A stretch of DNA of 64,000 nt, from the NCBI RefSeq assembly GCF_022458985.1, contig NC_061782.1, positions 11,115,672-11,179,671 on the forward strand, written 5' to 3'. The notes beneath the pieces were generated by a model. It was not told the DNA's origin, ran no database searches, and worked only from the letters and a program-made list of their open reading frames with translations. Shown one piece after another: positions 256 through 64,000 of the stretch; the first letter of the stretch is position 1; every line of letters starts with the position of its first letter. This stretch comes from Mugil cephalus (lineage: Eukaryota > Chordata > Actinopteri > Mugiliformes > Mugilidae). A program made the position numbers and the translations under genes.

Positions 256-3200
256 GTTTGTGAGCCAGAGAACCCATGCAAAGACAAGACCCACAACTGT
301 CACAAATATGCCGAATGCATCTACATCAGCCACTTCAGCGACCCGATGTACAAGTGTGAATGTCGGACCGGTTACGCTGGAGACGGCTTCATTTGTGGTG
401 AAGACTCCGACTTGGATGGGTGGCCTAATCAGAACCTCGTGTGCGGCGCCAACGCTACTTATCACTGCAAGAAGGTATTTTGTTGAGCTTTCTCTTGTTT
501 AAGTCAGCCTACCCCACAGTAACCCCAAACTAAACTATAAAACTCCACGTCAGGATAACTGCCCTAGCCTCCCCAACTCTGGACAAGAAGACTTTGACAA
601 AGACGGCCAGGGAGATGCTTGTGACAAGGACGACGATAATGACGGAATTCTGGACGAAAGGGTAAGAACATTTTTTCATCCGCGCTATTGTTTCACAAAA
701 ACGACCCTCCAAGATTTCAAGCTCATATTGTACAGTAGAAAATGTTAAACGCAAGGACCTGATAGTTTAGTCATACTACACTGCAAACCACAACATAGAC
801 AAGATCTTGTCAGGAGTCTGTGGAGAAGAATAAATACTCATATAAGCTGTACTTCCATTGATGTAATTGGATGCATTGCATTAGAATAGCATTACGTAAA
901 GGGTAAGATATGAATTTCTTTTGCAATATTTCATACACAGTTATACTGAATATTGGAGTTTCTGTAAAATAGTTTCTTTCTTCTTACTTCTTCCAAAGAA
1001 GCTTAGACTCAGTATGAGTCACATACATAGTGAGTGTGAGTGGTTTGCCTTTAAATAAGACAACTGAGATATCTCGTAAAACTCTGCAGATTAAAACACT
1101 GGCATGTTTATGCTCAAGGATTTTATAGTCTGGCTAGGGTCTTCTAAGTACAACATTATAAATACCTTATAAATGTGTAATCCTCCAGTTAAAGGGCAGT
1201 ATTTATTGCAATTTTCAGCCCTCTACCAATTTCAGCTTCAGCTACTACTGAGAAAATCGACTCTTTTCGACGCCTGGACACATTTGAGTCTAGGTTTAGA
1301 TTGCTGTTTATCAAATATATGGTATTAACATACATATACTTTCCTCAACTTTCAGGACAACTGCCCCCTCCTCTACAACCCACGCCAGTTTGACTTTGAC
1401 AAGGATGATGTGGGCGACCGCTGTGACAACTGTCCCTATGAACACAACCCTGCTCAGATAGACACTGACCACAACGGAGAAGGAGACGCCTGCGCCATCG
1501 ACATTGATGGAGATGGTAGAATAGCCACGCCTCAATAAATAAAACCCAATTTGTAGGAGCCAGATATTATATATATAGCTTTAATTTAAATCCATTTGTT
1601 ACCAGGAATTCTGAATGAGAGTGACAACTGCCCCTACGTGTACAACACTGACCAGAAGGACACTGACATGGACGGAGTGGGTGACCAGTGTGACAACTGT
1701 CCTTTGCTGCACAACCCGGACCAGGTACAATACACAATCCACAAATGATGACGCATTCTCGTGCAGTTCATGTTGTAACGGTTGTATTTGTCCAACAGAC
1801 GGATGTAGACAATGACTTGGTGGGAGATCAGTGCGACAACAACCAGGACATTGACGAAGACGGTCATCAGAACAATCTGGACAACTGTCCCTACGTGGCC
1901 AACGCCAACCAGGCTGACCACGACAAAGACGGCAAAGGAGACGCGTGCGACTACGACGATGATGATGATGGCATACCTGATGACAAGGACAACTGCAGAC
2001 TGACGCCCAACCCAGACCAGCTGGACTCTGATGGTGAGGATGTAGTGTTGGGTGCACGTCATGTGCTTTTCAATCACGTGTGTCTACTAGTTTGTTGAGT
2101 TGAGTTGATAAATTAATAAGTTACCTGCACTCTAGATAAACGCAGACATCGGCTTAAATGAAACTTGGCCCGATGTGAGAAACTGTACTCAATCTGAGAG
2201 CTGATCCATCCAAACTAGACGGATAGTTGGTATAATGGCCTTGTATATTCTGTCTGCCTGGTGGAATAGTCTCTCTTCCACAGTCTTAGTTCTCATTACT
2301 AGATATGTTGACATTGCGCTTTAGTGTGCCTTCTGCTTTCAGAGTCAGCAATTAGTTTCACTGCGGCAGGTGTGAAATGTGGCGTCTGTGGAAAGAGTCA
2401 ACCAACGGGTCGGTGATGTCATGCTTCGTGACTTCAGAGAGCTGCCCAGGAGGGCACACGCCAGGCTGTGAAGTTTTTATTTCCTTTAGGCTTTTCCCCT
2501 GATTAATCCACAGTGCCCAATTTAAGCTGGGTTACCTGGAGTTTGTACAGCTGTCAGTAACTAGAAACAGACCGTGGCTGAAGGAAGGTCCCGCACGCTG
2601 ACATTTTCAGGCTCTTTGCAGCTTGTCAGATAGTGTTTATTTGATAGAATCGTTTGAGCCCCTGGTGCAATAACGAAGATGGCAGCCAGCTACTTCCATG
2701 CAGCGGCCCCTCATTAGGCATCCTTTCCACTGCAAGTTCCTGGCTCCAATAGACTTCAGGCTTGAGATACTCAAAAATATCAATGACAGTGTCACAGCAC
2801 GGAAGGATCGCTCATTTTGGAAGACTTGGCAATGGCATTAAAGCCAGTTTCCTGGTAGGAATTGATATTTTTCCACTCATTTTTAATATTCACTCCTCAG
2901 CAGTCAACAGTGCAGTGGGAGTAATGACACTCACTTCATCTGACATAGATATTTTCCCAACCTTTGGAAAAACAAGGGGAAAAAAATTTCTGTCATCCAT
3001 TTCTAATTCAAAAGAGCTCAAGCCTAATCCTGTTCGGTGTGTGTGTTTTAAACAGGTGATGGAAGAGGGGATGCCTGCAAAGATGACTTTGACAATGACA
3101 GCATCCCAGATATTCTCGATGTGTGCCCGGAAAACAATGCCATCAGTGTGACAGACTTCAGGAAGTTCCAGATGGTCCACTTGGATCCCAAGGGAACCAC

Positions 3201-25286: not shown

Positions 25287-27866
25287 ATGGGACTCCTGCA
25301 GCTGCTGAAATCCCAGTTCCTGTGCCACCTGATCATCTGCTATGTGTTCCTGGTCAGCGGCCTCATCATCAACCTGCTGCAGCTCTGTACGTTGCCTGTG
25401 TGGCTGGTCAACAAGCAGCTGGCCCGCAGGATCAACGTCAGGCTGGGGTACTGCATTTCTAGCCGTAAGTACTGCAGTACTTCTGCAGTAGAAGTAGTGG
25501 TGTTGTTGCTGTAAACATGTTGTTGCTCTATCGCATGCTCAAGTCCAGTTATTAATCGCTCTTACTTACATAGACTCCTTTACAACCTTAATTATCAACA
25601 GAGATGGTTGCTGCCTTGGAGTGGTGGTCTGGGACTGAATGCACTCTCTACACAGACCCAAAGACTTATCCACTTTATGGGAAAGAAAATGCAATTGTGG
25701 TTCTCAACCACACTTACGAAATAGACTTCCTGTGTGGTTGGACTTTCTGTGAGAGATTTGGAGTTTTAGGGGTAAGAGAAATTGCTCAAAATTCATCCAC
25801 AAATTTCCTCTTTTTGAACCTGGAAAAGCTTTTTTTTCTCTTTTCTTTTTTTTTTTAAACTATTCAATTCATTGCTGTCCTTCTGTTGTTTATTATGCTT
25901 TCAACTTCCAGAGCTCCAAAGTGTTGGCCAAAAAGGAGTTGGCCTATGTGCCTGTTATTGGTTGGATGTGGTACTTCCTGGAGATCGTTTTCTGCAAGAG
26001 GAAGTGGGAGGAGGACCAAAGGATGATAACTCGGTGTCTGCAAAACCTACGGGATTATCCAGAAAACTACTGGGTGGGTTTCAGTGCGTGTTTCAGTTAT
26101 CACAAAGTCGAGATGACTCACGAATAATGCCAAACACTGTTGTTTTTCTGGTACAAGTTCCTGCTGTACTGTGAGGGAACGCGCTTCACGCCAAAGAAAC
26201 ATCAGATCAGCATGCAGGTGGCTGAGAGCAAAGGCCTGCCCAAGCTGAAATATCACCTTTTGCCCCGGACCAAAGGCTTCTGGGTAACCGTCCAAAACCT
26301 CAGGGGAACAGGTGATTATCTCTCATTGGTTAAAGATTTACATACATCCACCAAAATATATCAGATACCGTGGGTTGCTTTTTGTGCGACGGTATTTGGA
26401 AATCAAATGAGTCACACAGCTAACTGCTCCAGCTGTCTCCTGTGTAGTTGCGGCTGTTTATGATTCCACGCTGAACTTCAGAAACAATGAATCGCCCACT
26501 TTGCTTGGAATTCTCAATGGGAAGAAATATCATGCAGATTTATACGTGAGGTAGGAGGATGTTGTTTGGAGTGAGTGAGGATTGTTGGATTTTATTTCTA
26601 CCTCTACCGGTGTAGTGGATCTTTTATCTGTGTAATTTGACTCCCTCCCTCTTCACTTGCAGGAGAATTCCTCTAGAACAGATCCCGGAGGATGAGGAAG
26701 AGTGCGCTGCTTGGCTCCACAAGCTTTACCAGGAAAAGGTGATGGTCATGATGATGGCCTGAACAGCTGCTATACTTTCTCCGTTGTGTCTTTTTGCCTT
26801 TGACGTTTGAGTTAACTTCTTTAACATGTCAGACATTTTTTTGCCTTAAAAACATATTTACTCAAGCCTTTGTAAATAGTCTAAGAAGGAGTCTAGTTTA
26901 GGGAAGTCTGACCTTAAAGATAAGAGCGTGAAGTGTTGCATGACACTTTTCACTCTTTTTCTAGAAAAAAACAACATAGCCTCTAAACAGCAAACTTCTG
27001 TTGACGGTTTTTACATATAGCTGTGTTTTACAGTATGTTTTAACGTGTCTACAGGACAGCTTTCAGGAGCACTACACACAGACAGGGCGCTTCCCTTGTG
27101 CCACAGTGAGTCCTTCACGTCGGCCGTGGTCCCTCATCAACTGGCTTTTCTGGTCCTGCTTGCTCCTCTACCCTCTGGGCGTGCTACTCACTCAACTCGT
27201 CAGCACAGGATCGCTCTTTACCGTCGTAGTTGCTGTGGCTGTCTGCTATGCAGGTAGGTGTCGTACACTCGTACCCGTTAGCTAGTAGTGACGGCCCATC
27301 CTTCAATTTAACCTGCTCCTTTTTGTCCAAACGTTCTATAAAGCAGCAGACTTGACATCTCCAGCGTAAGTCCCCTTTCTTTTGCAAAGTATCATTTATC
27401 AGTCATGTTTTTTGTTTTACAAACTCGGACATTCACCCATCTGAACGGCTTCGCTAAGATGTTAAACGGAGACGTTGTGCCTCTGACAGCATGGGTTTAT
27501 GACGAACATGTTGCAGTTTCCACAATAAATAAGTCAGCCATGTTTGTAGCTGAGGTTAAAGTGGCAAACATGATGGAAGTTTTTCAAAACGATGGGTGTT
27601 TACTGAAAGCTTCCAGTCCCGAAGTTTCTAAATGTAACCATTAAATACTACTAAAAAGTCTTCTAGAAAAAAGTGCTAAATTAAAAAAGGGAATTTACTG
27701 TGGAAACAGTCGCGTCCTTTTACAAATCTTCACCACATCTTGCTGTAGTAATATTTTTCTGAACCTGTTTGCAGCTTCCCTGGGAGTTCGCTGGATGATT
27801 GGCCAGACTGAGATTGACAGAGCCTCAAACTATGGGAGTAAGGAGCGTCCTCAAAACAACAACTAA
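25287..27866 (+). CDS. agpat4: 1-acyl-sn-glycerol-3-phosphate acyltransferase delta
   Basis: Acylates lysophosphatidic acid to phosphatidic acid in ER and related membranes (family knowledge). Eight coding exons: 25287-25464, 25602-25771, 25912-26073, 26158-26311, 26448-26550, 26663-26738, 27055-27253, 27775-27866. They join in frame to 377 residues, against 378 in mammals. The start MGLLQLLKSQFLCHL is just after an acceptor and matches the family N-terminus. A hydrophobic segment covers roughly residues 13-50. The catalytic NHX4D motif is NHTYEID at 95-101; the EGTRF motif is at 176-180. FRNNESPTLLGILNGKKYHA is strongly family-specific. Two hydrophobic segments (about 305-355) precede GVRWMIGQTEID near the C-terminus. 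The closest alternative, AGPAT3, is less similar at the start and end. No broken residues seen; likely functional. Confidence 0.95.
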
Positions 27867-40500: not shown

Positions 40501-43500
40501 AAGCATTTTGGCAAAGCCCAGAGCCTTTGACGCTCGCTCTCGGGCCTCGTGGAACAGCTCTTTAAGCGACCGGCTCGTCTCGATAACCGACCGCCTAGAA
40601 AAAAAAAACAAAGTTTAAAACACCTCCACTGGGACAAAACATGTCGCCACGTATGTTGAAATGTAATAATGACAGCGTCCTCCCTACCTGATCTCATCTG
40701 AGGCAGTACTGTCATCTGCACTTTCCCAGAATTCATTGCCACTCTTTTGGAGACCGGCATCAAGGAACTCTCCAGTGGATTTGAGTAACATCCCAGCAAT
40801 GTCACTGTGAAGAACAAAAACTCTCATAATTATCAACTTTATTGTAAAAGTGTTGGTTTGCAGCATTCGTTTGTAAATCGGGACGTTAAAGCTGGACGGT
40901 TGGCAGGTTCACGCACCAGAACAGCTTCCCCGACTGGGCCTCCCCTCCTCGGATGTAAGGAGTGATGACTTTGGTGAAGTTCCACTCTTCCTCCAACAGG
41001 TTCTTTAAGCTGTGAGAGGCCTGAGGCAGCTGCTGCAACATCTGGATCCAACTATGCATGTAGTCAAAGTAAACCTACAAAAACAGCGGCAGATGTTAGA
41101 TAAACACAGGCTCTTTAATGTAATTTACAGTTAAATAATGCATAAATACTTAAGTCTGTCTCTTTAATGACTACACAGACAAGTACAAGAGGGAGAAATA
41201 TTAGCAGCCTTACCACCAACATCTTGTGAAGGTCTTCTTCAAACTCATCAATGTTGGCGTTTGTTTGCAAGCCCTGAGCATCAGTCACCACGCCGCGCAG
41301 CATGAACTGATAATACTGCTTCATGAGAAGACCACCTTTAAGGACCTCTTTGCACTCGCGCACCAACTGCAGAGTACAAACAGCACACGTGGGAACAATT
41401 AAACACAATACACCCGTCATCAAAGACAGCAATGGCCGGTTAAAAGGTACATTTGCTTTTCGTTGCAGCTGTTTATTTGATTGTCATTACAGATACAGCC
41501 ACACAAACGGTCAGCCATCTATACACTATGACTGGTTCCTGTGACTGGTCTCTTTTCTATTTCTTTTCTAAGGTATGTTAGATATGACCAGTTTCCAGTC
41601 ATTCAGTGTGAGAAGTTGGAAAACTGATCACCAAACCAGCAAGTGTTTCAATCTCCAGCCTGCTTGCCTGTTTGATGCTGAGCAGCGACGGCTCTCCAGC
41701 GGGCCTCTGTTCAAGTCGTAGTTTAAGGCATTCGTGAATGACGTTGAGGAGGACTCTGCACAATACGAGGAAGGCTGGCCGGAAGGATGGGAGATCCATC
41801 TCTATCAGGTCCTTCCAGGACACCTGGTCGGCTCCGAGCTTTGGATCTGTGGGATGGCTGCAGGATAAGTGGCGCGACAGCTCTGGCAGGTAGTCGCTGT
41901 AGAGCATGGGGTCCGGGAAGTCTGCGAACTGCAGGTGGAAAAACACGAAGGTAATTCAGCATGTTCTGCAGAACACTATTTCCTATTGGAAACACAACAG
42001 TCTGATAAATTAACAGTATTAAAACTTGACTTATGGTTCCTCTGCAAAGATGCAAATTTGAAATTTCCATCCTGACATGACCTGGAAGGCTCACTGTGGC
42101 TTTTTAGCTACAAGGTCTTTTAATGGAAATGTCAATAATTAAGTGTGCCAAGTGCTATTGAAGAGCGTGTGGCCGTCCCATCCCAAGAGCAGCATAAACC
42201 CTACTACTCCCCAGTATTTGGAGTAGGGTAACAGTGTGCTCTTGTATTAAATATGTCTAAAAACAGTCAATCTCTTTACACAGTCTCTCCTCAAGTCAAG
42301 CTGTTTTTCTGTCAAATGTGAAGTTGGTGCATTGGCAGTTTTAACACTATGCAAGGTCACACACGAACATCTGCAGAGGTGCACACACTCGAGGCAGACG
42401 ATGAAATTTAGGTCACACTGACCCTAGCGGAATAACAGAAAGCAACACTTGGCCTTTGCAAGTTCTGTTCAGATCTCCTTCGTGCTCTATGACACAGCAT
42501 CGTAATCAGATTCACCAAACCAGCGTTTCAATTCTTTCTAAAAACACTTGTGGGTGTTGTCTTATCCAACCTGAATGGTCAAAACACACAATATTTTAAC
42601 AGTGATTAACTGTTGCTCTCAACTCAATAAAAGTCTCTTTTTCCCCTCTCAATATGCCAACACATCCTCAGCTGTTTATAGCATGGGCTCAGATTTCTCG
42701 TAAGATCCCAACAGTGATAACTGCCCCACATGATGTCCACTCTGGGTCCTAATGAAATTACAAACATTTGCACTTTTACAAATTATACAATTAGCTATTT
42801 GACTGCATTTCTTGTCCACAAACACACAGAATAATAGTGCAGATGTGACTGTGACAGTGAATACAGCTATTAAAACAGAAAATTATATTCATCTGAAATT
42901 ACCAGCTTATATTGTTGTGTGCTTTGTACTAATTTACTTTGTCTTGTAAATTCATACTGCATCCAGTTTGATAGGAAAGTGCCACAGCATGCTTCAGGCT
43001 GCAGCTCTGCTTTAATAAACTTAAAAGCAAAATTAGCTTTCCCCAAAAAATGAATTGCAGTTGATTATCCTGAACAGACATTAAGGCAAAACCGCTGTGG
43101 TTGTCCATAATTGGCATACAAGCTAGACTTTAATGAGGGGCTCAGCCAGTGGCCATCTCTGTAATCACATCTAATAAGATGTCATAAAATGCAATACAAA
43201 ACGTTGTCCCAATGTCTCACAGCCTGAGATAAGGTTTCATAACAGTATTCCTCTATTTATAATTTATATATGTGATTTTTAAATTAAACGCTGGAGGTGG
43301 TTTTTGGTCATTTATGTTTCTGTGCGTGTGCACATCAGTCATCAAAAGAAGGAGGAGAGGCCAATTTTTTTTTAACTACTACATGGATTTTAGACGTCCC
43401 CTGGCTTAGCTGTAATAAAGCTGTCAGGTTTATTTTCGTTATGTTTAATGCAAGATAATTTATGACGAATTATTAATGACAGCCTCACCTCCAGTGCAGG

Positions 43501-46500
43501 AGTGTGTTGGAGCAGCGCAGCTCTGGACCGCTGAAGAGAGCGATCCATCAGCTTGTGCAGTCTGAGGATCAGTTTACGCAGTCCCATCTGTTTCAGAGCT
43601 TTATCCACAAATGGTCTGTAGATGGCTGTGGGGCAGAATACTCCTCCACTGACAGACGCTTCTACGCTTCCTGAAGTAGCGGCTGGGAGAAACTCTTCTG
43701 AACACATTCGGGCAAATGTACGAGTCAGGTTGGGAGACAGCTCTCCCTCTACTACAGACACCGGTACTCCTTCCTCCTCCTCCTCCTCCTCCTCCTCCTC
43801 CTCAGCGTCCCTGTCCTCCCCATCGCTTTCAGCCGTAAAAGTGGCTGTCGAGTCATTCTCATCTTCCTCGTTCTCTTCTTCTTCATTTCCACGGGAGCAG
43901 CGGGGCGAAGGGATCTCAAAGACAGGCCACCCGATACGGGATAGATCATGAAGGCCCAACACAGTGGCCATAACACGCAGCTTCTGATTGAGGTCCTGGG
44001 TGATGTTGAGCCACAGACAGAGCGCCTGCACCCTGCCCTGAAAGTCTCGTTCTGCATACTTTTCATAGTCTCTCTGTAAGGCCTGCAAAGAGGGGTACAG
44101 AGCTTCCACAGACTCCAATAATCCCATAACATGCTTGACCTGCTCGAAGGCGAGTCGCTGGCGTTGAAGGTGATCCCTGCAATCAGTGCCAGAGCCTAGC
44201 GGCTCCGCTGCATTCATCGCTGATGAGGGGCTGGCACTGAAGCCCCAGGGATCTACTCCACAGTGGTTGGTCTCTGCTACAGCAGGCCTCTCCTCTCCAC
44301 AGACTAGATCTGGGACACTCTGATAGTCCCCCTGCATTATTTGTGACCCCAAACACTGAGCGCCCCTCAGGCTATCATAGTTGACCTTAAAATGCAACAC
44401 GTCATTGATGATGTCAGGGATAGCTTGGCGGGCAGTGAAAAGAAACAGATCCTGGTCGCCGGTGGAACGCCGTGCATGCCATGCCTGTAGTTCCAACCAG
44501 ATGAACTCAGTGTTGTGAAGCATGAAGGGCATGTTCTCCAGGCCTCTCTGCTCCTTCTCCTTCCTCTTGGAGGACATAGATGTGAGCTTGAGCAGCAGCC
44601 GCAGAGTTTCAAAGAACTTGAGACGGTCAGCAGGACAGTCTGTCCTGGAGGTCTGGCGGTGAGTTCGGGCAATAAGGGGCACGGACACAGGAAGTTTGCC
44701 GCTGCTGCAGCCCAAGCTCAAGTAATGCTTCCTGGGATCCATGTTGACGGCAAAAGGGCTCGACTTTGAGAGTGGATCCAGCATGAACGAGCCTTCGATG
44801 ATCTTCTTGTGGTCTCTCTCAGTGGAGCGCAGCGTGGCCCTGTGCTTCTTGTTCTTCTTGTCCTCGGGGGTCTCTGCTGGCTTTGGAGTCTCTCTCGGGA
44901 CGGTTAGGTTGACGTCCGCTAGAATTAAAAAAAACAGAGTTAGTACAATGCAGATGAACTGCATTTTTAAGATGTTTTCCGTAGATTCCTCTGCCAAAAA
45001 GCCTTATTAACTTACCCTTGTTTGGAGACCGACCGGCACTTCTCGTCTGGCTGTTTCTTTGGTGTTTTCCAGACATGCGTTTCATCTGACGGGGGGTACA
45101 AGGAGGTGATGGGTTATACAGGGCCTCATCTTCTTCGCTGGGAGGATCCCAGGATTCATCCACCTCAGACTTCTGTTGGGAAGCATCTTCCACTCGCTTG
45201 GCCTGCCTGCCAACGTTGAATTACCAACAGAGAGGACAAACTATTGACATGGTCTGGATTTGCATATTTACAACAACAAAAAGCACTGTTTCTGGAAGAA
45301 ATGCTACATGCTTGAGCAAAATGAAACTATTAAGGTCATAGCACAAAACAAAACCTAAGAAATGTGTGTACAAGGTCAAACAGTGCCGTCTGCATACTTT
45401 GCACCCACAACAGTGTGTGCGGCAAATCTCTTCTAATTCCAGGGCAGACAGGTTGCTAAAGTGCTGCTAGACTGAACGTCTGCTGCTACCTACAGCGGAG
45501 CTGTGTGTCGTCTGGAGTCTGACTGGCTGCCTCCTAAATGTATAGGAGCAACGCTCTGTGCATGACCAGCATAATAAGCTACAGGCACCCTCCCTTGGTC
45601 TAGGTAAACATAATAGCTCAACCAGACAGAGAGAAACAGTAACCCTCATCAATTCTGTCTGCTAAGTCATCAACCACAACGCACAGGTTACACAGATTAC
45701 AAGGAGGCTGAGACTCGCTCCCTCAGCTGCGCAGACGCTGTTAGACTGTACAAACACAGGGCTAACACAAAAACATCACATCATTTTCTTGAGGTTATAT
45801 TAACTCTTAGAACAAAAATGTTACCATAAGGGATTGTGGATTGTAACGTGGAGTTCAAACGCGGAAGCTGACGAACAGACACAGAAGCCAGTCGCTTCTA
45901 GTTCTGCAGAAAGGAAATACTTGAAACACTTCCTTCTGGGAAAAAAAGATTTTAAAAAGCGGCACGCCTTTCCAGATTACAATGTCAAAGCATTGTTCAC
46001 TAATGCCTTTCTGAGGGTTTTTTAATAGGATTAAAGCGAAAGGTTAGAAGGTCAAACCTCGCCAAAGAAAGAAAAACGGGAGAAAAAAAAGAGAAGGGGA
46101 ATGAAAAAGGGCGATATCTACGCTGGCCGCCATGTGTCCCTTCAAAGATCGTCATCTGACAAAGAACGGCATTCCCCAACACGTGCCTGTTCGCATCTGT
46201 AGGTGCAGCTGAAAGGGTCAACTCTGCGCGACTTTCACTGGGGGAGTGGGTGTTAATCGAGGGGAGGGGGTCGTGTGGAATTCACTTGCTTAAGCTTTTC
46301 AAGAGGTTCTATTGCCCATCTGCCCCACAGCAGAGTCTGTCTGTCTCTCTCTCTCCGCACACACAATCTGGAAGCAGCTGGGGGGGCTACATGCAAGGAG
46401 ATCGGACACCTGCTGCAGATCCTACGTGTGCTAATCAAAACTTTATTAAAGCCCTTTATACCACTATTACTGCTACCTTACAATATACAGATTACGTATC

Positions 46501-52324: not shown

Positions 52325-52640
52325 AATATGCCTTCTTCTCTGTTTTTCTTTAAAATAGTTTATTTCCATTTAAATTTCTGACTGACCCACAGCCCAAAAT
52401 TCTTCTTACAGAAATGCAATGACACATCAGATTTCTTAGCATTTCTGTCATTTCAGTTTCATCGCTTCACACAGGAGACCCAGTTAATGTGCTCTTGACA
52501 TAGATTACAGCTGAAAACATTGACATGGAAACAACCTTTGTGAACCATAACTTGCCGTTGTCGGGAAATTCAGGTAAAACAGGTGAGAGTCAATGACACA
52601 CCGATGTGTTCAACACTGTGTATTATTCGCATACACTAAA
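52325..52640 (+). repeat. Direct duplication, copy A (contains exon 1 of the HIPK-like gene)
   Basis: Shares an ordered set of matches with 52985-53280: TCTGTTTTTCTTTAAAATAG / ACTGTTTTTGTTTAAAATTG, TTTAAATTTC, CCCAGT...TGCTCTT, GAAAACA(T/C)TGACAT, GGAAATTCA, GTGAGAG, TGTGTTCAACA and TGTATTATT. Spacing between matching points is about 640-660 bases. Copy A keeps the ATG and the donor of the first coding exon. Confidence 0.7.
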
Positions 52641-55600
52641 TCTCGCAACTTTAATTTTATTCGTATAGCCTCAAAAACACAAACAATTTGTCTCAAGATG
52701 CTTTACAGAACCCAGCCTGGGGGTCTGAGGCAGTAAACATACTGTCATTGCTGTTTTTTGGTCATGGATTATAGTGGCTTAATTGATGGACATTAACTCA
52801 TGAATCAGTTTATGTGTTCGCCTTCACATTTATTTATGGCAGCAGTTATTTTATTCATTGTTATTTGAATGAAAGTTTTGAATCGGTATATTAGTAAGAT
52901 GCAATTGGTTTATTTGCATCAAGTCCTAAATGAAAGCTTCCAATTAAATATCAGTTCCTAACTTATGAACACTCTGCATCTACGAAATGTTTTCTTCACT
53001 GTTTTTGTTTAAAATTGCTTATTTTCTTTTAAATTTCCAACTGACTTATGTAAAAGAATTCCTCTCTCGGAAAAAACATATGTTTTAATTTGTTCAGGAT
53101 CAGCTGTTCACACAAAACCCAGTCAAACTGCTCTTAATTTACATAGCAAGGGAAAACACTGACATAAAGACATGTCAAAACAGCTTATGCAAACCAAAAC
53201 TTGCAGCTGTGAGGAAATTCAAGTTAAAGTGGTGAGAGCAATGTGTTCAACATACTGTATTATTTGCACATGGCAAATGTTGAAACATACTCTGTTCTTC
53301 TGTTGCTTTTTGCTGTTAAAGCTGATGTTTTTCATGTAGACCAGTTTGATACACAGAAACTATAACCTATAAAGGGTCATGTCGTATGTTTGTTTTTTCT
53401 TCTTGAGCTCATGAAGTGATGCACCAAAATCATAATAATGATTTTTCACCAAAAAATAAATGGTAAGCACAACCACATTAGCATATCTAGCCTAAAGGTT
53501 GTTAAGCTGTAATATCAGATTGAAACCAGTAACAAAATACAGACAAACACCAAGAGAAAGTGGCCTTTAAATGACCTTTTGATTCAAAACTAGATTTTAA
53601 CAAAAAATGTACAGTAAGTGACTAAGACCGTGCGTGATTAAAAATTATAGTAACACTTTTTGTTCATTTAAATGGTCTATACATCCTATTTGTGTGGTAG
53701 TGCACGATGTGCTGTGATGCATTGACAGATTTGACACATTTTCTCTCCACATTCATGTCCTAGTACTTGACCACTTACGGCTGAAACCGTGGGACCTGAT
53801 GTTCAGTGCCTACCAGTTCTGCGGCTACATCTACACCAGCTGTTTTAATCAAGTTGCTGAGTGCATGAACATGTACACGAGAAAAACAGTGGCCGTCAAG
53901 ATCCTGAGGAAGAGGGCGAGTGATTCTCAGGAGCCCAGGGAGGTAGATTCTTTGAGTCACATGTCATGACTTGCAGACTGAGATGATACATCTGACTTGC
54001 CCATTAATTGTAAGTCAGGTGTATCATCTCTATCATGTGTTGCGTTTTCTCTGCAGCTGACAGTGCTTAAACAAATGGAAAGGCTTAGTCCTGTCAACAT
54101 TGTTCATTTCTTTGAGGACTTTAATTACAAAGGGCATACTTGTCTAGCCTTTGAAAAGCTAGACATGAGACTACATGACCTGCTGCAGAAGAGGCGCGAC
54201 AAACCGCTCTCTCTTGCGGAAATTAAACCCATTACTCAGCAGGTAAGTATATTTAATCATTTTCACCTTCTAATAATGATAACAGATCTTGTGATTTCTG
54301 TGCCAAATATGTATCACGGCAACTATACTTCTTCCTCTGTACTTGTAGTTGCTAAACGCCCTCGAATTTCTGAAGGATGCCGGCGTCATACATACAAATA
54401 TTAAACCACATAACATTATGTTGGTGAATCATAAAGACCAACCCTTCCGAGTCAAACTCACTGGCTTTGGTAGAGCCATCCAAATTGCTGACATTAAGCG
54501 GCATGCAGTCACGCAGGTCTTTGGATACAGGTTGGTTTGCAAAGTCATGTCCATCTTTTATCATCTCATCTAAAGCTTCCAATTATTATTAATTTATAAA
54601 ACTGTGCAGGAAGTAATTGTAAATATTGGCTCTTGTCTCCCAACCCAGGTCTCCTGATGTTATTCTGGGCCTTCCTGTCTCAGCATCCACAGATATGTGG
54701 TCTTTGGGTGCTGTTGTGGCTACCATGTATCTCGGCAGCCCACCTTTCCCTCACCGTTGTCCGTATTACCTGGTATGTCATCTTATATATTTAGACTGAG
54801 GGGTAAGGCATATATCAAAAACTAACAAAATGTCCTTCGGATTCAAGTAACTTTATGCACATATTCTCCCTACAGATGAAAACTCTTGTGGAGACTCTGG
54901 GTCAGCCAGAGGACGCGCTGCTAAATGAAGGTACCAGCTCCCTGCTGTATTTCAGCTGCGACCGGTCGGACTCTGGAAACTGTGCATGGAGGTTCAAGGT
55001 ATGCAACTGTGTCCTTACCTTCAAGTGGACCAAATAGTTTTGGTATGATTGCATGTAAATCCAAAGATTGTTGCAAAATATATGTAATCTGCTTTTTCAG
55101 ACACCAGAAGAGCACAGGGCTGCAACTGGGTACCCACCACTGATTTACAGAGGCAAATATATCAAGGTTGACAGTATTCAAGACCTCACAAAGGTAGGGG
55201 TTCCTTGTTGTACCATGTATGTAACTGCTGAACCAATCCATTTATGTGTTAGCAACTTGCTGTTTAGGATTCATAAACGCATTTGTAAATGCAGGTGAAC
55301 CCCGATTTGAACCCATGTGAGGACAGGCTAACATTTGCCAGCCTTCTGAGCATGATGCTTCACATGAACCCTTACAATAGAATCACACCAAGCGAGGCTT
55401 TGACGCACCATTTTTTGACTCGGCACCATTTTTTTGAAACGGCTGACGACGCCCCATGTAACGCTCCTACTGAAACTACTGGCGGTCCTCCAGATATTAC
55501 TTCATCTGAAGCTCCTTGTGAAGCTCCAGCTGCAACTGTTGGGGATGCTCCAAGTGTAGCTCTAGCTGAAAGTGCCAGTGAAGTTCCTGGCAAAGCTCCC

Positions 55601-56263
55601 ACTGAAACCACAAATGAAGCTACTGGCGAAGCTGCTGGTGAAGTAACTGGTGAAGCTCCTTGTGAAGCACCCGCTGAAACTACTGGTGGTGCTCCTGACA
55701 TTACTTCTTTTGAAGCTCCCAGTGAAGCTCCTACCAAAAATACTGGCAATGCTACTGATATTACTTCTGCAGATCCTAGTGAAGCGTCTCCTGCAACTGT
55801 TAATGATGCTCCAGGTGTAACTCTTACTGAAGCTGCTGGTGAAGCTCCTGCCAAAGCTCCTACTGAAACTACCTCTGATGCCCCTACTACCAGTGGAGCT
55901 CCTTGTGAAGCTCCCACAGGTGTAACTCTTGCTGAAGGTGCTAGTGAAGCTCCTTGTGAAGCTCCCACTGAAACTACCTCTGATGCCCCTGACATCACTT
56001 CCAATGGAACTCCTTGTGAAGCTCCCACCGAAAACACAGATGGAGCTACTGGTGAATCTGCTGGTGAAGTGACTGGTGATGCTCTTTGTGAAGCTGAAAC
56101 TGAAGCTGCAACTGAGGAAACTTGTGACACTAATGGTGAAACTCTTAATGAAGTTACTGGCAACACAAACACCCGGAGGACACTTGAGAAAAGAATCAGA
56201 GAATTTGCCAACAGGTTGTCTAAAGTTCATTGTTGCTGTTGCACTGCAAATGCTGTTGAATGA
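52525..56263 (+). CDS. HIPK-family pseudokinase-like protein with repeat tail
   Basis: Eight exons joined in frame: 52525-52573, 53764-53942, 54057-54242, 54349-54530, 54649-54772, 54876-54998, 55101-55193, 55295-56263; 634 residues. Residues about 26-360 align with homeodomain-interacting protein kinases: HTCLAFEKLD, QPFRVKLTGFG, GYRSPDVILGLP, STDMWSLGAVVATMYLG, WRFKTPEEH, NRITPSEALTHHF. Catalytic positions are lost: the glycine loop reads CGYIYTSCFNQV, the HRD Asp is Asn (HTN, 153-155), and DFG is GFG (177-179). Lys62 of VAVK is kept. This predicts little or no phosphotransfer; a scaffold or regulator is the natural inference, and a decaying gene is the alternative, although every frame and splice site is intact. 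The tail 365-600 is a Glu/Ala/Pro/Thr repeat; the end carries a basic helix and CCCC (625-628). Exon 1 (METTFVNHNLPLSGNS) is inferred from phase and splice sites and is less certain than the rest. Confidence 0.8.
52985..53280 (+). repeat. Direct duplication, copy B (decayed exon 1 region)
   Basis: Second copy of 52325-52640, lying inside intron 1 of the HIPK-like gene. At the position of the start codon, TGACATGG of copy A is TGACATAA here; at the exon border CAGGTAAAA is CAAGTTAAA. It therefore cannot serve as a first coding exon in the same way. Identity is moderate with several indels. Confidence 0.65.
55435..56130 (+). repeat. Degenerate GAAGCTCC-type repeat encoding an Ala/Glu/Pro/Thr tail
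   Basis: Many short units of the form GAAGCTCC(T/C) encode E-A-P steps, nested in a longer pattern. APC(E/N)AP begins four or five blocks, and DITS (GA-TATTACTTC or close) occurs four times. The reading frame stays open throughout. Lysine and arginine are nearly absent from the encoded tail. Confidence 0.85.
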
Positions 56264-56302
56264 GTGTCATCATTCATCATAACTTTTTATAATTAGTTAT
56301 TA

Positions 56303-56323
56303 AATAAACAATGAATAAATAAA
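56303..56323 (+). terminator. Poly(A) signals of the HIPK-like gene
   Basis: AATAAA occurs three times, at 56303-56308, 56314-56319 and 56318-56323, 40-60 bases after the TGA at 56261-56263. This supports a short 3' UTR and a real transcript end. Confidence 0.65.
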
Positions 56324-58699: not shown

Positions 58700-59320
58700 C
58701 TAGTTTTGTGTTCTCTGAAACGCTCTAAGTCTGCGCATTTGGGCGTTTCGTCGGTCTCTTCTTGCCTTGTGTCGTAACAATAGCTCGGTATCATTTCTCG
58801 ATTGTTTTGAATAGAAACTGAGAGACATCAGAACAGGCCTGACTACCTGAGAGGAGAGAAAAGGAAGTGCTTACGTCACTCGGACGTTGCCCTCGCCACA
58901 TCACTTGCTGCCTTCACTGCTCATGTAAAGCTCGGAGATTCAGCCACCGATGTAACACGTTGTTTTCGTTTCAGACAGTTATACCAGTCTGAAAGCTGAA
59001 GATTAGCAGACGACGCCTTTATGTGATTTTCTTCTGGCACCTTTCTTACATAATTTCTCTTAATCCATTCAGGGTGTAGTAAATAAACAAATTCGTGTCG
59101 TCGTGTAGGTGTAATATTTCCGACTGCACCTGAAAGCCCCTTCTGTCACGGCAGGTTTCACCGAGGGGGAAACAAGATCCTCATTGAGCTTTGTCTTTGA
59201 CAACATCCCCTCGCTGAAAGACATATCTCTCTGGCACACAGACACGTGAGGCGGCGAAATTAATAACGCTACTTTATTATATTGCAAACGTAAGAAGCGA
59301 GGTGATAAACCTCTTAAAAA
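58700..59320 (+). promoter_or_regulatory. kcnk1 promoter and 5' UTR region
   Basis: The sequence directly before the kcnk1 start codon becomes more CpG-rich than the AT-rich spacer (for example GTCACTCGGACG near 58875). No acceptor is evident near the ATG, so the start codon is probably in the first exon. Transcription start not visible. Confidence 0.35.
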
Positions 59321-62300
59321 ATGCTCCAGTCTCTAGCCAGCAATTCTTGCGTGCGTTTGATACAGAATCACAAATCGACGTGGTATTTTGCGTCTTTGGT
59401 GTTGGGGTATCTGCTCTATCTCGTCTTCGGCGCCGTCGTCTTCTCCTCGGTCGAGCTGCCGTATGAAGACGCCCTGCGCCAGGACCTGAGGGCCCTCAAG
59501 ACACAGTTCCTCCAGGACAACGACTGTCTCTCCGAGGAGCGTCTGGAGCAGTTTCTGAAGAAAGCGCTGGAGGCCAGTAATTATGGGGTGTCCATTCTCA
59601 ATAACGCCTCGGCCAACTGGAACTGGGACTTCACGTCTGCGCTGTTTTTCGCCAGCACCGTGCTGTCCACCACAGGTAGGTGTCGGTCACCTCTCAGGCT
59701 GGACGGGGACAGGTGATGCTCCCGCAGCCGACCAGGTGCGCAGCAGCAGTTTTAGTGAAGAAAAATAATCATATCTGCAGTTATTTTAACAAAAGCGTGA
59801 TCAGTGCCCCTTCAGTAATCACTTTCATTTGTGTGACATTCGCTTTCGTTCATGAAAGCCAAGGTTAGTCATGTCTAACGTGTTTTTAGCTTCATCCATA
59901 ATTTAAAAAAAAAGAAAAAAATAGAAGTGAGTCTACCCTTTACCTTATCTTTGGTTATATAAATAAGATAAAGTTCCCGTCTTGCGTTGACAATCAGCTC
60001 TGCCTCAGGGCACAACCTTTGATAAATATTATAAAAAAGAACAAGCCCTTTTGGAAAGTGAACCTTTGGTGACATTGTGTCTGTGTCAACATCGCCTTTG
60101 TCTTAACCCTAAAGGCACGTATTCTAATTCGGTCCAATGACTTAGACTTAGTTTGTATAATTTCTGTTTAACTCTTCCACTGGGCCCTATATGGGACAGC
60201 AGTGGCTTTTTGAACCAATTACAGCTCTGTCCACGAGTTGTGTTCGAGCAAAAGCTGCATGCAGCATGTTGTTGGAAAGCTATTTTTCTTCAGTTTTCTT
60301 CTGATTTATAGGAATTAACCAACACAGCAGACATCAGATAGCAAAATAAGAAAATTCAGGCGAACACAACAGCTTCTTATTTTTTAACTGTGTGCCAACT
60401 TTGATTACTAAAGAACAATAGTCTATCACTTAAAGTGATTCTGACTTTTGTGATAGAAGCTGCAGAGTCTCTGCTTTCAGAAGAAACCAAGGCCATGCAC
60501 GTTCATGAACAGCATTCGATTTACTTTGGGTATTTTTGGAAATGTCCTAAATAGGCTTTTTTTGTTTTTGCAAAAAGGCTGGAAAACTAAGAGGCTAAGG
60601 CGTTTGGGCCGTCTCGGGCAAAAAAAAGGTGTGATGTAAGTTGCTATCTAGCACTGCACACTGAAAGAACGTGGTTTGCAGATGCTTGTCAGGCCACCTG
60701 GAGAACTTTAGTCTGACCCACATGGCAGCAGTTATCTGTGACGTTCCAACACACACAATTGTCCAGATTGTCTCTATTTGTATTTGGCTGCCTCAGACAG
60801 TTTCTTGTTTAGGTCTCAACAAAAGTGATGGCTAAATAGAGTTGACAGACATCTAGATCAGATAAAACTCTGAGACTTTTTAATGTTTTTTTGCCTTTCT
60901 TTTTTAGTGGCGTATAAAGATTCATCTTAATCTTTGTTCCTAGTAATAATTTTAAAACCACCACTTCCTCTTTTCACTGAGTATTTTCCACTGCCTTTGA
61001 AACTTACAGATAGGTTACAAAATACATCACCACACTAATACCTTTACTGCTCACCAGCTTTTAGGGGGCAGGGCCCGGTGTACAGCCCTGCCATATTCTG
61101 AACAGAGGGCAGTGAATGAGTTATGAATAGCTGAAGCTGAATATATTACAAGTCGCATGACAAGGACACATTCTAAGTTCCTCATTTGCGAGTTTGTGTC
61201 AAAGAGCCACGGCATTTTTGAGACTCTTGCTAGGTGCTCTTAAAAAGAAGATGTCAGGTTTCTCTTCCTCATCAACACCAACAGGACATCACCTAAAGAA
61301 ATATCCTGACTAACCGTCTCTATTGCATTTCATTTGGTTTAATGACTGTTCCCGTGTGTTGGATGGGGGGACATATTAGCAGGAATTATGTTTTCCTCCG
61401 TGTATAATCACCTCTAACTATGAAGCGTTGTGTTCTCGCTTCAGGAGTAAACAGATCCTCTTTCATGCAAGGCGCCATGTCGTGGCACCATGTGTCTACA
61501 GTGTCCCAGAACAGACAAACCAAACTAAACTCTTACACTCCGCTCCTTTAAAAGAGCCAGAAACAGACCGAACACTGAAATGTTAAGATAAGATAATCCT
61601 TTAATTTAGCCCACAATATTATTTCCGCCCTGGAACTTCCTGTATTGAGACCAGATTGTATCTTTTATAAGGACACAAATCAGTGTTGGGGTTGCCAAGA
61701 GTGGTACATTTGCTGAAGAGGTACTCAGTATTATTAGTACTAAGATGGACGTTTCATTGCTACTGCTTGCTTGGATGAAACAGACCTTAACAATATTAAA
61801 TCTTGTAACTGGAATAAGGAGACTTCTGCAGCTATATTTGTGGTTTCGTGTGGAGATTTAAAAAAGTGGTATAGTGCCATCCAAGACTCAAAGTAATATT
61901 AACAATATAATAATCTGTGTTTTATATTATTTATCAGATGACAGATGTCGTCACATAATGTTGCCAGCTCACACTAAGATGCTAGAAGGAAGTTTTTTGA
62001 CCTGAGGAGTGCCTCAATCCCCAGTAAAGTAATTAAACCTGTTAGTGTTTTCCACTAAGTACTAAAGGAAGAATTCACAATGCTGCCAACAGGAAGACGT
62101 TCTTTTTTTTGACTGAGCAGTCATTACACAGCATGTTAGCTTCATAAACCCTTTGTATAGGTACATTATTATTCAGTACTTATGAATTAATCCTGTGACC
62201 TATAAGGATAAAGATCTAATAGCAAAGACTCCATCATCATAATCTGGCCCAGTAACAGCTTTTTTGATTATATTATATATGATTATATATATCTTTTCCT

Positions 62301-62701
62301 CACAGGATACGGACACACAGCGCCACTGTCGGACGGCGGGAAGGCCTTCTGCATTATTTACTCAGTGATCGGAATCCCCTTCACCCTCCTCTTCCTCACT
62401 GCCGTGGTTCAGAGGATCATGGTGTTCAGCACGCGCAGGCCCATCATGTACATCCACACGCGCTGGGGCCTGTCCAAGCCGCTGGTGGCCATCGTCCACG
62501 CCTCCCTGCTCGCCACCGTCGCCGTCTCCTGCTTCTTCCTCATCCCCGCCGCCATCTTCTCAGCGCTGGAGCAGAACTGGAACTTCCTGGAGTCCTTCTA
62601 CTTCTGCTTCATTTCTCTCAGCACCATCGGCCTGGGTGACTACGTACCCGGAGAGGCCGTCAATCAGAAGTTCAGGGAGCTCTACAAACTGGGCATCACC
62701 G
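59321..62701 (+). CDS. kcnk1: Two-pore-domain K+ channel TWIK-1, coding exons 1 and 2 (3' end outside window)
   Basis: Background potassium channel subunit of plasma and endosomal membranes (family knowledge). Coding exons 59321-59675 and 62306-62701 join in phase to 250 residues plus one base. MLQSLASNSCVRLI at the start and VFGAVVFSSVELPYEDALRQ are near identical to vertebrate KCNK1. Visible landmarks: TM1 about 22-45; Cys69, the cap cysteine that links subunits; sequon NAS at Asn95; first pore TTGYG with Thr118, the residue known to affect TWIK-1 ion selectivity; Leu146 in M2; second pore TIGLGDY. The donor after GGCATCACCG (62702) follows the family exon 2 border. The third coding exon (M4 end and C-terminus) is not found up to 64000, so intron 2 exceeds 1.3 kb. 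Copy a or b cannot be told. Confidence 0.95.
59676..62305 (+). other. kcnk1 intron 1
   Basis: 2.6-kb intron between the two pore-domain exons, with GTAGGT donor and CCTCACAG acceptor. No open frame, RNA gene or nameable repeat seen. Confidence 0.6.
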
Positions 62702-64000
62702 GTGAGTGCTGATGTCTTTGGAGATGGATTCATGAATCGTTTTAATGGTGCTATATGGATAATTTTATTTTCATGTCATATTAGATATTATCATTATAAA
62801 TGTTGCTGTTGTTGCCTTTGCTTACTGGCACGATTGTCATAAACTCTACAGCTTATCACAAGTACTTCTTTATTTTCTGCCGTCTCTTCTTTGAGTTCTA
62901 CAGCAACCCATTTTTCTTCAGTAATTATAATTCGAGTTTCACCACGCAACATAAAGTTATATTGTTTAAATTGTTCCGTTTTCTTGGAATTGACGTCGCA
63001 GCCATCTTCCGATATGAGATAATGATCTTTAGTTGGTTTTACGATGGGAAACTTTGACCTGGCAAGTTGTGACACAATTACCTGGGCCAGTTTTCCGACC
63101 TTGTTTCATATCATTTGCAATGTGGTAATGAGATGCACTTAAATTAAAGATACACACATATTTGTGTAATAATAATAATTTCATACAACACTGAATAAGC
63201 TGGGGTCATAGAGAAGAGAAGCACTAGCATAGACTTTTATTGCCTTGACAGATAGGAGCCGTCTTTGTGTTGAATCCAAAATGGGACGCTATTGCAGACC
63301 TTAAAAAAGACAGGGAGAAACCACTGCACATATTGATATTGGAAGTTAGACATAGCCTGCCCTGCACGCACAAAGTGTCACTGTCTCTGCTGCTATGGGC
63401 AGTTTATCTAAACAGTGTAAAGCCCATTCAGGGTAGTTCGTTTATGTTCTGCTGAGAGAGCAAGAATTAGATATTTTCCTGCGTGTATAAAACCACATTA
63501 GGCAGCCGGACCAACCAAAATGGTGTGGTTCATAAAACTGGGCCATGGCCTAGTGGAGAGCAGCAGGGCTCGCCTGCATAATCTGGGTGACTCTTGCTGC
63601 ATGATGACGGCAGCAGATCTGTAAATCTGGACAAGCTGTGGTGGTTGCACCGGAATGTCGGACGCTACCCTTATTGACTGTCCCCTGAGTGCGTGTTGTG
63701 GGTGTGGGTGTGTTACGCAGCAGCAGCAGCGGCAGCAGCCAGAGAGACGTCATCCTGTAGGCACAATGTGTCAGTCTGTAGGAGGAGGGAGACGGTAGCA
63801 GAATGTGTTTATTTGCACAAAAGGCACATTCGGACAATTTCCTCTATGAAGAATTACACGTCTTCCATCGGAAGTGACGTCACCCCCATCTGAAGTAGCG
63901 ACCTAGCGTTCAACATCCCCCCAGAAAGAACATTTAATCTCGTTTATTGGCATTTGTGTTTATTTTGGTCTTGCACTTGCAAATGAGCGCTGCTTCTGTG
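62702..64000 (+). other. kcnk1 intron 2, 5' part
   Basis: Follows the donor at 62702. No match to the expected third exon (M4 and LETFCEL block). A short GCAGCAGCAGC tract lies near 63716-63737. Otherwise featureless. Confidence 0.55.

What the first reader, a model, noticed from the sequence alone, without database searches (positions are those of the whole stretch)
52525..56263. HIPK-family gene with three catalytic motifs lost: a predicted pseudokinase
Seen: eight in-frame exons encode a HIPK-like fold in which the glycine loop is gone (CGYIYTSCF), the HRD Asp is Asn (HTN, 153-155) and DFG is GFG (177-179), while VAVK Lys62, the WSLG block and CMGC-type C-lobe features remain. Known: the HRD and DFG aspartates are required for catalysis and Mg-ATP binding. 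Inference: a non-catalytic HIPK paralog retained as scaffold or decoy, or a young dying gene. Intact splice sites, open frames and clustered poly(A) signals favour retention.
Basis: partly seen in the sequence, partly recalled or inferred. Interest (0 to 1): 0.8.

Follow-up and report, generated by a model that had tools for sequence, protein, structure and literature searches.

The report
Retained fish HIPK-like pseudokinase gene
A grey mullet gene encodes a kinase-shaped protein whose catalytic parts are gone, and related fish keep intact versions with largely the same losses, so it looks like a retained non-catalytic gene with an unknown job rather than a dying one.

Summary
Eight exons (52525-56263, +) give an open 634-637 aa HIPK-like kinase with the glycine loop gone, HRD changed to HTN and DFG to GFG, while beta3 Lys and alphaC Glu are kept. 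From Val17 on it is identical to an annotated Mugil cephalus protein. It is not a mullet-only accident: 20 proteins from eight named genera plus one unnamed source form one clade (13 tree rows, support 100/100). In them the first and third loop glycines are lost in 20 of 20 and HRD Asp is Asn in 19 of 20, while beta3 Lys, alphaC Glu and catalytic-loop Asn are kept in 20 of 20. DFG loss is not shared: Asp is kept in 13 of 20. Mullet substitutions avoid conserved fold positions (7 of 57 against 53 of 101, p=4e-7), so the fold is still constrained. Nearest published parallel: VRK3 (HGN/GFG). Function is inferred: a non-catalytic binder, perhaps membrane-held by a basic, Cys-rich tail. Not done: dN/dS, expression, structure (tool off), copy number (tool unreachable). 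Patchy occurrence suggests a dispensable gene. Pseudokinases are a known kind; no listed title in my searches was about a fish HIPK-type one.

The parts
52525..52582 (+). exon 1 (start ATG; donors at 52573|gtaaaa and 52582|gtgaga both keep frame)
   Evidence: peptide resembles N-terminus of relative P0002
53438..53462 (+). alternative first exon used by NCBI isoform X2 (MIFHQKIN, donor gtaagc)
   Evidence: against P0001
53764..53942 (+). exon 2: degraded glycine loop (GYIYTSCFNQVA), beta3 VAVK, alphaC Glu
54057..54242 (+). exon 3: N-lobe to alphaE
54349..54530 (+). exon 4: HTNIKPHN (HRD Asp to Asn) and GFG (DFG Asp to Gly)
54649..54772 (+). exon 5: activation segment end (SPD for APE) and DMWSLG
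54876..54998 (+). exon 6: C-lobe
55101..55193 (+). exon 7: C-lobe insert aligned with that of HIPK2/3 (TPEEHRAATG)
55295..56263 (+). exon 8: end of kinase domain, 12-nt-based EAP/TE repeat tail, C-terminal basic amphipathic segment and CCCC, stop
56299..56319 (+). poly(A)-like hexamers ATTAAA and AATAAA
52992..53268 (+). diverged tandem copy (66%) of the exon-1 region 52333-52631

Best explanation
This is the mullet member of a conserved pseudokinase branch of a percomorph-fish HIPK-like kinase family. Shown by sequence: the kinase fold is kept (beta3 Lys-alphaC Glu pair, spine residues, catalytic-loop Asn, alphaF Asp-Trp), while two glycines of the phosphate-gripping loop are lost across the branch, the catalytic base in nearly all of it, and the metal-binding Asp in the mullet and several others. 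Inferred: the protein cannot transfer phosphate; it keeps a closed, active-looking kinase surface that binds partners or substrates of catalytically intact family members, and the C-terminal basic amphipathic segment followed by cysteines (possibly S-acylated) holds it at a membrane, so that it works as a competing or scaffolding partner. Whether it still binds nucleotide without metal is open: the adenine-pocket residues Val, Ala and Leu are kept, but a Tyr replaces the first loop glycine.
For: One clade, 100/100 support (13 of 78 rows; 12 of 70 rows), whose inner order fits the taxonomy (Ovalentaria, Pelagiaria, Perciformes). Site counts in 20 clade proteins: first and third loop Gly lost 20/20, HRD Asp to Asn 19/20; beta3 Lys, alphaC Glu, catalytic-loop Asn, DFG Phe, gatekeeper Phe kept 20/20; canonical rows intact 10/10. 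Of 59 columns at least 90% conserved outside the clade, 11 are changed in the clade majority or in mullet, 7 of them at loop Gly, HRD, catalytic-loop Lys, DFG or APE. Mullet changes: 7/57 conserved against 53/101 variable columns, Fisher 4e-7; stricter versions 3e-6, 2.6e-6 and 0.027. Neutral drift to 54% identity left no stop in 1 of 1000 runs. Tail: basic amphipathic segment in the 7 clade and 7 other tails tested; two or more adjacent Cys in the last 25 residues in 15/20 clade proteins against 24/156 other family proteins.
Against: No assay, expression, structure or dN/dS. Relatives' proteins in the database are intact by selection, so broken orthologs would not be seen. The clade is patchy: eight named genera; Amphiprion, of the same family as Stegastes, showed HIPK1 (P0164) but no clade member in the capped lists. 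Dissostichus keeps HRD and DFG. Asp at DFG in 13/20 and the kept beta3 Lys leave residual nucleotide binding possible in some species. The tail also occurs in catalytically intact family members (P0130, P0132, P0135), so it is not specific to the pseudokinase, and five clade proteins lack the Cys cluster (P0009, P0128; P0007, P0011, P0012 are partial or short).
Confidence: 0.55

Rival explanations
1. The gene is decaying: catalytic residues were lost because selection is gone, and the open frame in mullet is a leftover.
For: Mullet has lost more than its kin: the second loop Gly (kept in the other 19) and the TDLYDAVSAD tail motif found in 16/20 clade proteins; its end branch is long (0.49); the clade is patchy, and two members are annotated only as short proteins (P0011 321 aa, P0012 318 aa).
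Against: Constraint on conserved fold columns in the mullet lineage; intact frame and splice sites; intact relatives with the same losses in several percomorph families.
Confidence: 0.15
2. A non-canonical active enzyme: the fold uses another residue, or carries out another transfer reaction, despite the motif losses.
For: beta3 Lys, alphaC Glu and catalytic-loop Asn invariant in 20/20, and Asp at DFG in 13/20; PMC2639636 Table 1 (passages read) lists CASK (GKGPFS/HRD/GFG) as active, and PMC6858067 (search listing with the start of its abstract only) describes SidJ as a kinase-like fold that catalyses polyglutamylation.
Against: The HRD Asp is lost in 19/20 together with two loop glycines; in the table rows that I saw, none of the three listed active kinases (CASK, WNK1, titin) lacks the HRD Asp.
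Confidence: 0.12
3. A nucleotide-independent or metal-free nucleotide-binding allosteric partner of one specific kinase (JAK JH2-like or STRAD-like) rather than a membrane-held competitor.
For: In the same fish family two multi-domain proteins carry an HRN/GFG domain in front of an HRD/DFG domain (P0245 of 944 aa, P0246 of 1055 aa); adenine-pocket residues are kept in the mullet clade.
Against: The mullet protein has one kinase domain and no known partner; the tandem proteins lie elsewhere in the tree.
Confidence: 0.18

Closest known systems
VRK3 (vertebrate pseudokinase; PMC2639636, PMC4718504, passages read)
   Same: Same loss pattern: degraded glycine loop, HxN, GFG, with the Lys-Glu pair and catalytic-loop Asn kept (VRK3 TRDNQG/FSLK/HGN/GFG); 12 of 20 fish proteins share Thr for the catalytic-loop Lys (mullet keeps Lys).
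   Different: Different kinase family; VRK3 fills its adenine pocket with bulky residues, whereas the fish clade keeps Val 20/20, Ala 20/20 and Leu 18/20 at the spine sites. Convergent, not a relative.
HIPK1-3 (homeodomain-interacting protein kinases)
   Same: Closest kinase-domain relatives, including the HIPK2/3 C-lobe insert.
   Different: Canonical rows keep HRD Asp (65 of 65 domains), and DFG and the activation-loop Tyr (10 of 10); the fish protein is short, lacks the long HIPK C-terminal part, and lacks that Tyr.
Expanded fish HIPK-like kinases ('HIPK1-like/2-like'; HIPK expansion reported in flatfishes PMC8618825 and Lophius PMC7729161, passages read)
   Same: Same family by tree, short architecture and C-terminal basic tail. 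That the genes of those papers belong here is my inference from their names.
   Different: Most held here keep HRD and DFG; no passage I read in those papers mentions catalytic loss.
JAK JH2 and HER3 pseudokinases (rows of Table 1, PMC2639636)
   Same: HRD Asp replaced by Asn (HGN, HRN).
   Different: Other kinase groups; JH2 sits in tandem with an active kinase (recalled), HER3 keeps DFG and an intact loop.

Membership tests
Pseudokinase | protein kinase fold recognisable by profile | tested here: met
   PF00069 E 8e-40; HIPK3 6e-65
Pseudokinase | one or more of beta3 Lys, HRD Asp, DFG Asp missing | tested here: met
   HRD Asp to Asn, DFG Asp to Gly in mullet; Lys kept
Pseudokinase | no phosphotransferase activity | not testable with these tools
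   needs purified protein
Pseudokinase | loss shared and retained across species | tested here: met
   HRN in 19 of 20 clade proteins; constraint test; DFG loss shared by only 7 of 20
HIPK family (HIPK1-3) | kinase domain closer to HIPK than to DYRK | tested here: met
   222.8 bits HIPK3 against 133.4 DYRK1B
HIPK family (HIPK1-3) | activation-loop Tyr (STY), autophosphorylated (recalled) | tested here: not met
   Val in mullet; Tyr in 0 of 20 clade rows, 10 of 10 canonical
HIPK family (HIPK1-3) | long C-terminal homeodomain-interacting/PEST region (recalled) | tested here: not met
   the tail after the kinase is about 270 aa of EAP/TE repeat plus a basic Cys tail; HIPK1 rows are mostly about 1080 aa
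Percomorph HIPK-like family | groups inside the fish clade beside HIPK1-3 | tested here: met
   64 of 78 rows, 100/99; 66 of 70 rows, 100/100; no DYRK row was in either tree
VRK family (VRK3) | VRK-type kinase domain | tested here: not met
   the 60 shown of 1585 solved-structure matches are HIPK, DYRK, PRP4, CLK/LAMMER, CDKL5 or unnamed kinases; no VRK among those 60

The most novel reading that the evidence does not exclude
Percomorph fish run a fast-evolving, membrane-tethered HIPK-like kinase system in which catalysis has been discarded repeatedly, once as a lasting single-domain pseudokinase clade (this gene) and separately as JAK-like pseudokinase-kinase tandems, the inactive members acting as decoys or regulators of the active ones.
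Probability: 0.25. Interest if true: 0.75.

Novelty: new member of a known kind. Interest (0 to 1): 0.55.

Why it matters
It would be a pseudokinase clade from the HIPK branch of kinases, with close catalytically intact relatives in other fish, so the step from enzyme to non-enzyme can be compared pair by pair. It shows the same HxN plus GFG end state as VRK3, reached independently. It also warns that fish proteins annotated 'HIPK1/2/3-like' can lie outside HIPK1-3 and that some are probably not enzymes; in the passages I read, the Lophius and flatfish papers tie HIPK family expansion to eye size or asymmetry by citing work on the Hipk family.

Tried and rejected
Rejected: mullet-only sequence error or fresh lesion (relatives share HRN and the loop loss). 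Rejected: a second HIPK copy in the window (tblastn of the protein on the window found, besides this locus, five weak hits: one kinase piece at 33.2 kb, E 0.37, in the MAP3K4 region, and four with E 2.6 to 9.6, taken as chance). Rejected as evidence: openness of exon 8 alone. Rejected: the Cys-rich tail as unique to the pseudokinase (24 of 156 other family proteins have it too). Tested and not rejected: all 12 HRN rows's clade forming one group without Dissostichus (AU p 0.217), so one loss and a later reversal cannot be told from other orders. Papers: no listed title was about a fish HIPK pseudokinase (one search matched 25 papers and listed 15, none of which I opened) or about mullet kinases (8 of 19 listed); most subscription papers are not in that library. 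Rows dropped: the first alignment was 90 domains hand-picked from the 147 eukaryote-range proteins then held; from it the first tree left out five short or second-domain fragments and seven near-identical Thunnus rows (P0004, P0006, P0012, P0121, P0123, P0124, P0125); the second tree took 70 hand-picked domains of at least 230 residues, so P0016 is not in it. Only the best 120 hits of each of the three protein searches could be fetched, and two of the searches scored a capped set of candidates. In one search one fish-family protein was counted as canonical and three canonical ones as family; the counts given here are the mended ones. The amphipathicity p-values are for the best stretch of each tail, so they are too small.
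Full report
What is there. The product from Val17 to the stop is identical to 'homeodomain-interacting protein kinase 3-like isoform X2' of Mugil cephalus, so the window is grey mullet or something indistinguishable from it. Two details differ: exon 1 can also end at 52582 (637 aa), and the public isoform X2 starts from another exon at about 53438-53462. The exon-1 region has a diverged copy at 52992-53268.

What it belongs to. The domain is a protein kinase (PF00069, E 8e-40), closest among solved structures to HIPK3 and HIPK2, then DYRK. Protein searches brought many fish proteins, largely named 'HIPK1-, 2-, 3- or 4-like' or uncharacterised (654 proteins at 1e-60 in the last, of which 120 were listed). 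In a tree with the motif sites masked, these stand apart from canonical HIPK1-3 rows (64 of 78 rows, support 100/99; 66 of 70, 100/100).

The pseudokinase clade. The mullet protein lies in a clade of 13 of 78 tree rows (100/100, stem 0.40), standing for 20 proteins from Mugil, Thunnus (three species), Scomber, Stegastes, Embiotoca, Cyclopterus, Clinocottus, Dissostichus and one unnamed source. Its inner order follows taxonomy: Mugil with Embiotoca and Stegastes (Ovalentaria, 98/85), Thunnus with Scomber (Pelagiaria, 100/99), Cyclopterus with Clinocottus and, weakly (91/70), Dissostichus (Perciformes). This is what descent of one gene from a percomorph ancestor would give. In the 20 proteins the first loop Gly is lost in 20 and the third in 20, the second kept in 19 (mullet has Ser); HRD Asp is Asn in 19, the exception being Dissostichus; DFG Asp is Gly in 7 (mullet, P0002, both Stegastes, Cyclopterus, both Clinocottus) and kept in 13; DFG Gly is Ser in 11; the catalytic-loop Lys is kept in 5, mullet among them. 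The beta3 Lys, alphaC Glu, catalytic-loop Asn, DFG Phe, gatekeeper Phe and the Val and Ala of the catalytic spine are kept in 20 of 20. The activation-loop Tyr of canonical HIPK (10 of 10) is absent in all 20, but also in most of the other rows aligned (Tyr in 4 of 60, gap in 4), so that loss is probably older.

Is it kept by selection. Codon data of relatives were not available, so dN/dS was not computed. Protein evidence: of 59 kinase-domain columns at least 90% conserved outside the clade, 11 are changed in the clade majority or in mullet; 7 are the three loop glycines, HRD Asp, the catalytic-loop Lys (changed in kin, not in mullet), DFG Asp and APE Glu, and 4 lie elsewhere. Comparing mullet with the majority of 12 other clade rows, it differs at 7 of 57 conserved columns and 53 of 101 variable ones (Fisher 4e-7; 3e-6 when 80% of the rows must agree, 2.6e-6 when the ancestral state must agree between sister and other rows, 0.027 in the strictest and smallest set). 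A pseudogene would change both classes about alike. A neutral simulation to 54% identity left no stop in 1 of 1000 runs; this is weakened by the fact that protein databases list intact frames. P0002 is a 556-aa open frame on a contig of 1832 bases; since the mullet gene has seven introns, that contig is probably transcript-derived, which I infer and did not show.

Against a vital role. The clade is patchy. Amphiprion, of the same family as Stegastes, is represented in the database by HIPK1 (P0164), but no listed hit or 47 is a clade member from it; those lists are capped at 120. Mullet lacks the tail motif TDLYDAVSADxG that 16 of 20 clade proteins carry, up to four times each; none of 222 other eukaryote-range proteins held has it. 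The motif's absence and the EAP/TE repeat tail suggest that the mullet tail has been rebuilt.

How it may work. Shown: a constrained fold without catalytic parts. Inferred: no phosphotransfer, partner binding through the kinase surface, and membrane holding by the C-terminal segment RTLEKRIREFANRLSKVHCCCC, a basic amphipathic stretch followed by cysteines. Adjacent Cys in the last 25 residues occur in 15 of 20 clade proteins and 24 of 156 other family proteins, and the basic stretch also in catalytically intact members, so active and inactive members may meet at the same membrane; competition or scaffolding is then the simplest role. I put about 0.85 on a retained pseudokinase and about 0.4 on the membrane-held competitor or scaffold.

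Comparison with known cases. VRK3 has the same set, TRDNQG/FSLK/HGN/GFG, with Thr for the catalytic-loop Lys and with the Lys-Glu pair and Asn retained for architecture (PMC2639636, passages). VRK3 binds no nucleotide because bulky side chains fill its pocket (PMC4718504, passages); the fish clade keeps the usual spine residues, so metal-free nucleotide binding remains possible. HER3 (HRN/DFG) and JAK JH2 (HGN/DPG) share the Asn (Table 1).

Recurrent loss. Among 262 domain pieces of 176 non-canonical proteins held, the HRD site is Asp in 187, Asn in 26 (19 in this clade), Tyr in 1, Gly in 1, gap in 47; canonical domains are Asp in 65 of 65 (mending). On the trees the fewest D/N changes are 5 and 6. 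Two multi-domain proteins, P0245 (944 aa open on a 3267-base contig) and P0246 (Nothobranchius furzeri, 1055 aa), carry HRN and GFG in the first domain and HRD and DFG in a later full domain; first domains group with each other (90/71) and the later ones with each other (95/73), away from the mullet clade, on long branches. This resembles JAK architecture, but P0246 could be a fused gene model: it also holds two partial kinase pieces.

Literature. Expansion of HIPK genes is reported in flatfishes (PMC8618825, passages) and Lophius (PMC7729161, passages), and Hipk1 among families unique to marine medaka in its comparison (PMC7493909, passage). Searches listed no title on a fish HIPK pseudokinase; one search listed 15 of 25 matches, and the library lacks most subscription papers.

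Noticed in passing
P0245 27-357 and 409-738; P0246 15-343 and 553-899: Fish HIPK-like proteins with an HRN/GFG first domain and an intact HRD/DFG later domain, like JAK JH2-JH1; separate from the mullet clade in the tree.
   Followed up: partly
P0023, P0034 (Xiphias), P0015 (Paralichthys), P0143 (Scatophagus), P0223 (Chaenocephalus): Further, apparently independent losses of the HRD or DFG Asp in the fish HIPK-like family; the three P0223 domains are nearly alike and could be a fused gene model.
   Followed up: partly
tails of P0002-P0010, P0016, P0121-P0126: Conserved short motif TDLYDAVSADxG in the otherwise variable tail, 16 of 20 clade proteins and 0 of 222 others; four copies in one Thunnus thynnus protein; absent in mullet.
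   Followed up: partly
window 52333-52631 and 52992-53268: Tandem duplication (66%) of the exon-1 region, leaving a diverged second copy of the first exon.
   Followed up: partly
window 31.7-45.0 kb (-): MAP3K4 gene: MEKK4_N domain E 1e-199 at 43393-45003; kinase pieces at 33.2 kb and 31.7 kb (Pkinase below its cut-off).
   Followed up: partly
window 59318-62712 (+): Exons of a two-pore potassium channel (Ion_trans_2 E 5e-26 at 62212-62709; no Pfam match for 59318-59713); KCNK1-like by recall.
   Followed up: no
window 1694-2095 (+) and 25753-26124 (+): Thrombospondin type 3 repeat exon (E 5e-21) and a weak acyltransferase match below the family cut-off (AGPAT4-like by recall).
   Followed up: no
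window 55372-56266 (-): Two long minus-strand frames (284 and 234 aa) open across the exon-8 repeats, which I put down to the repeat composition.
   Followed up: partly
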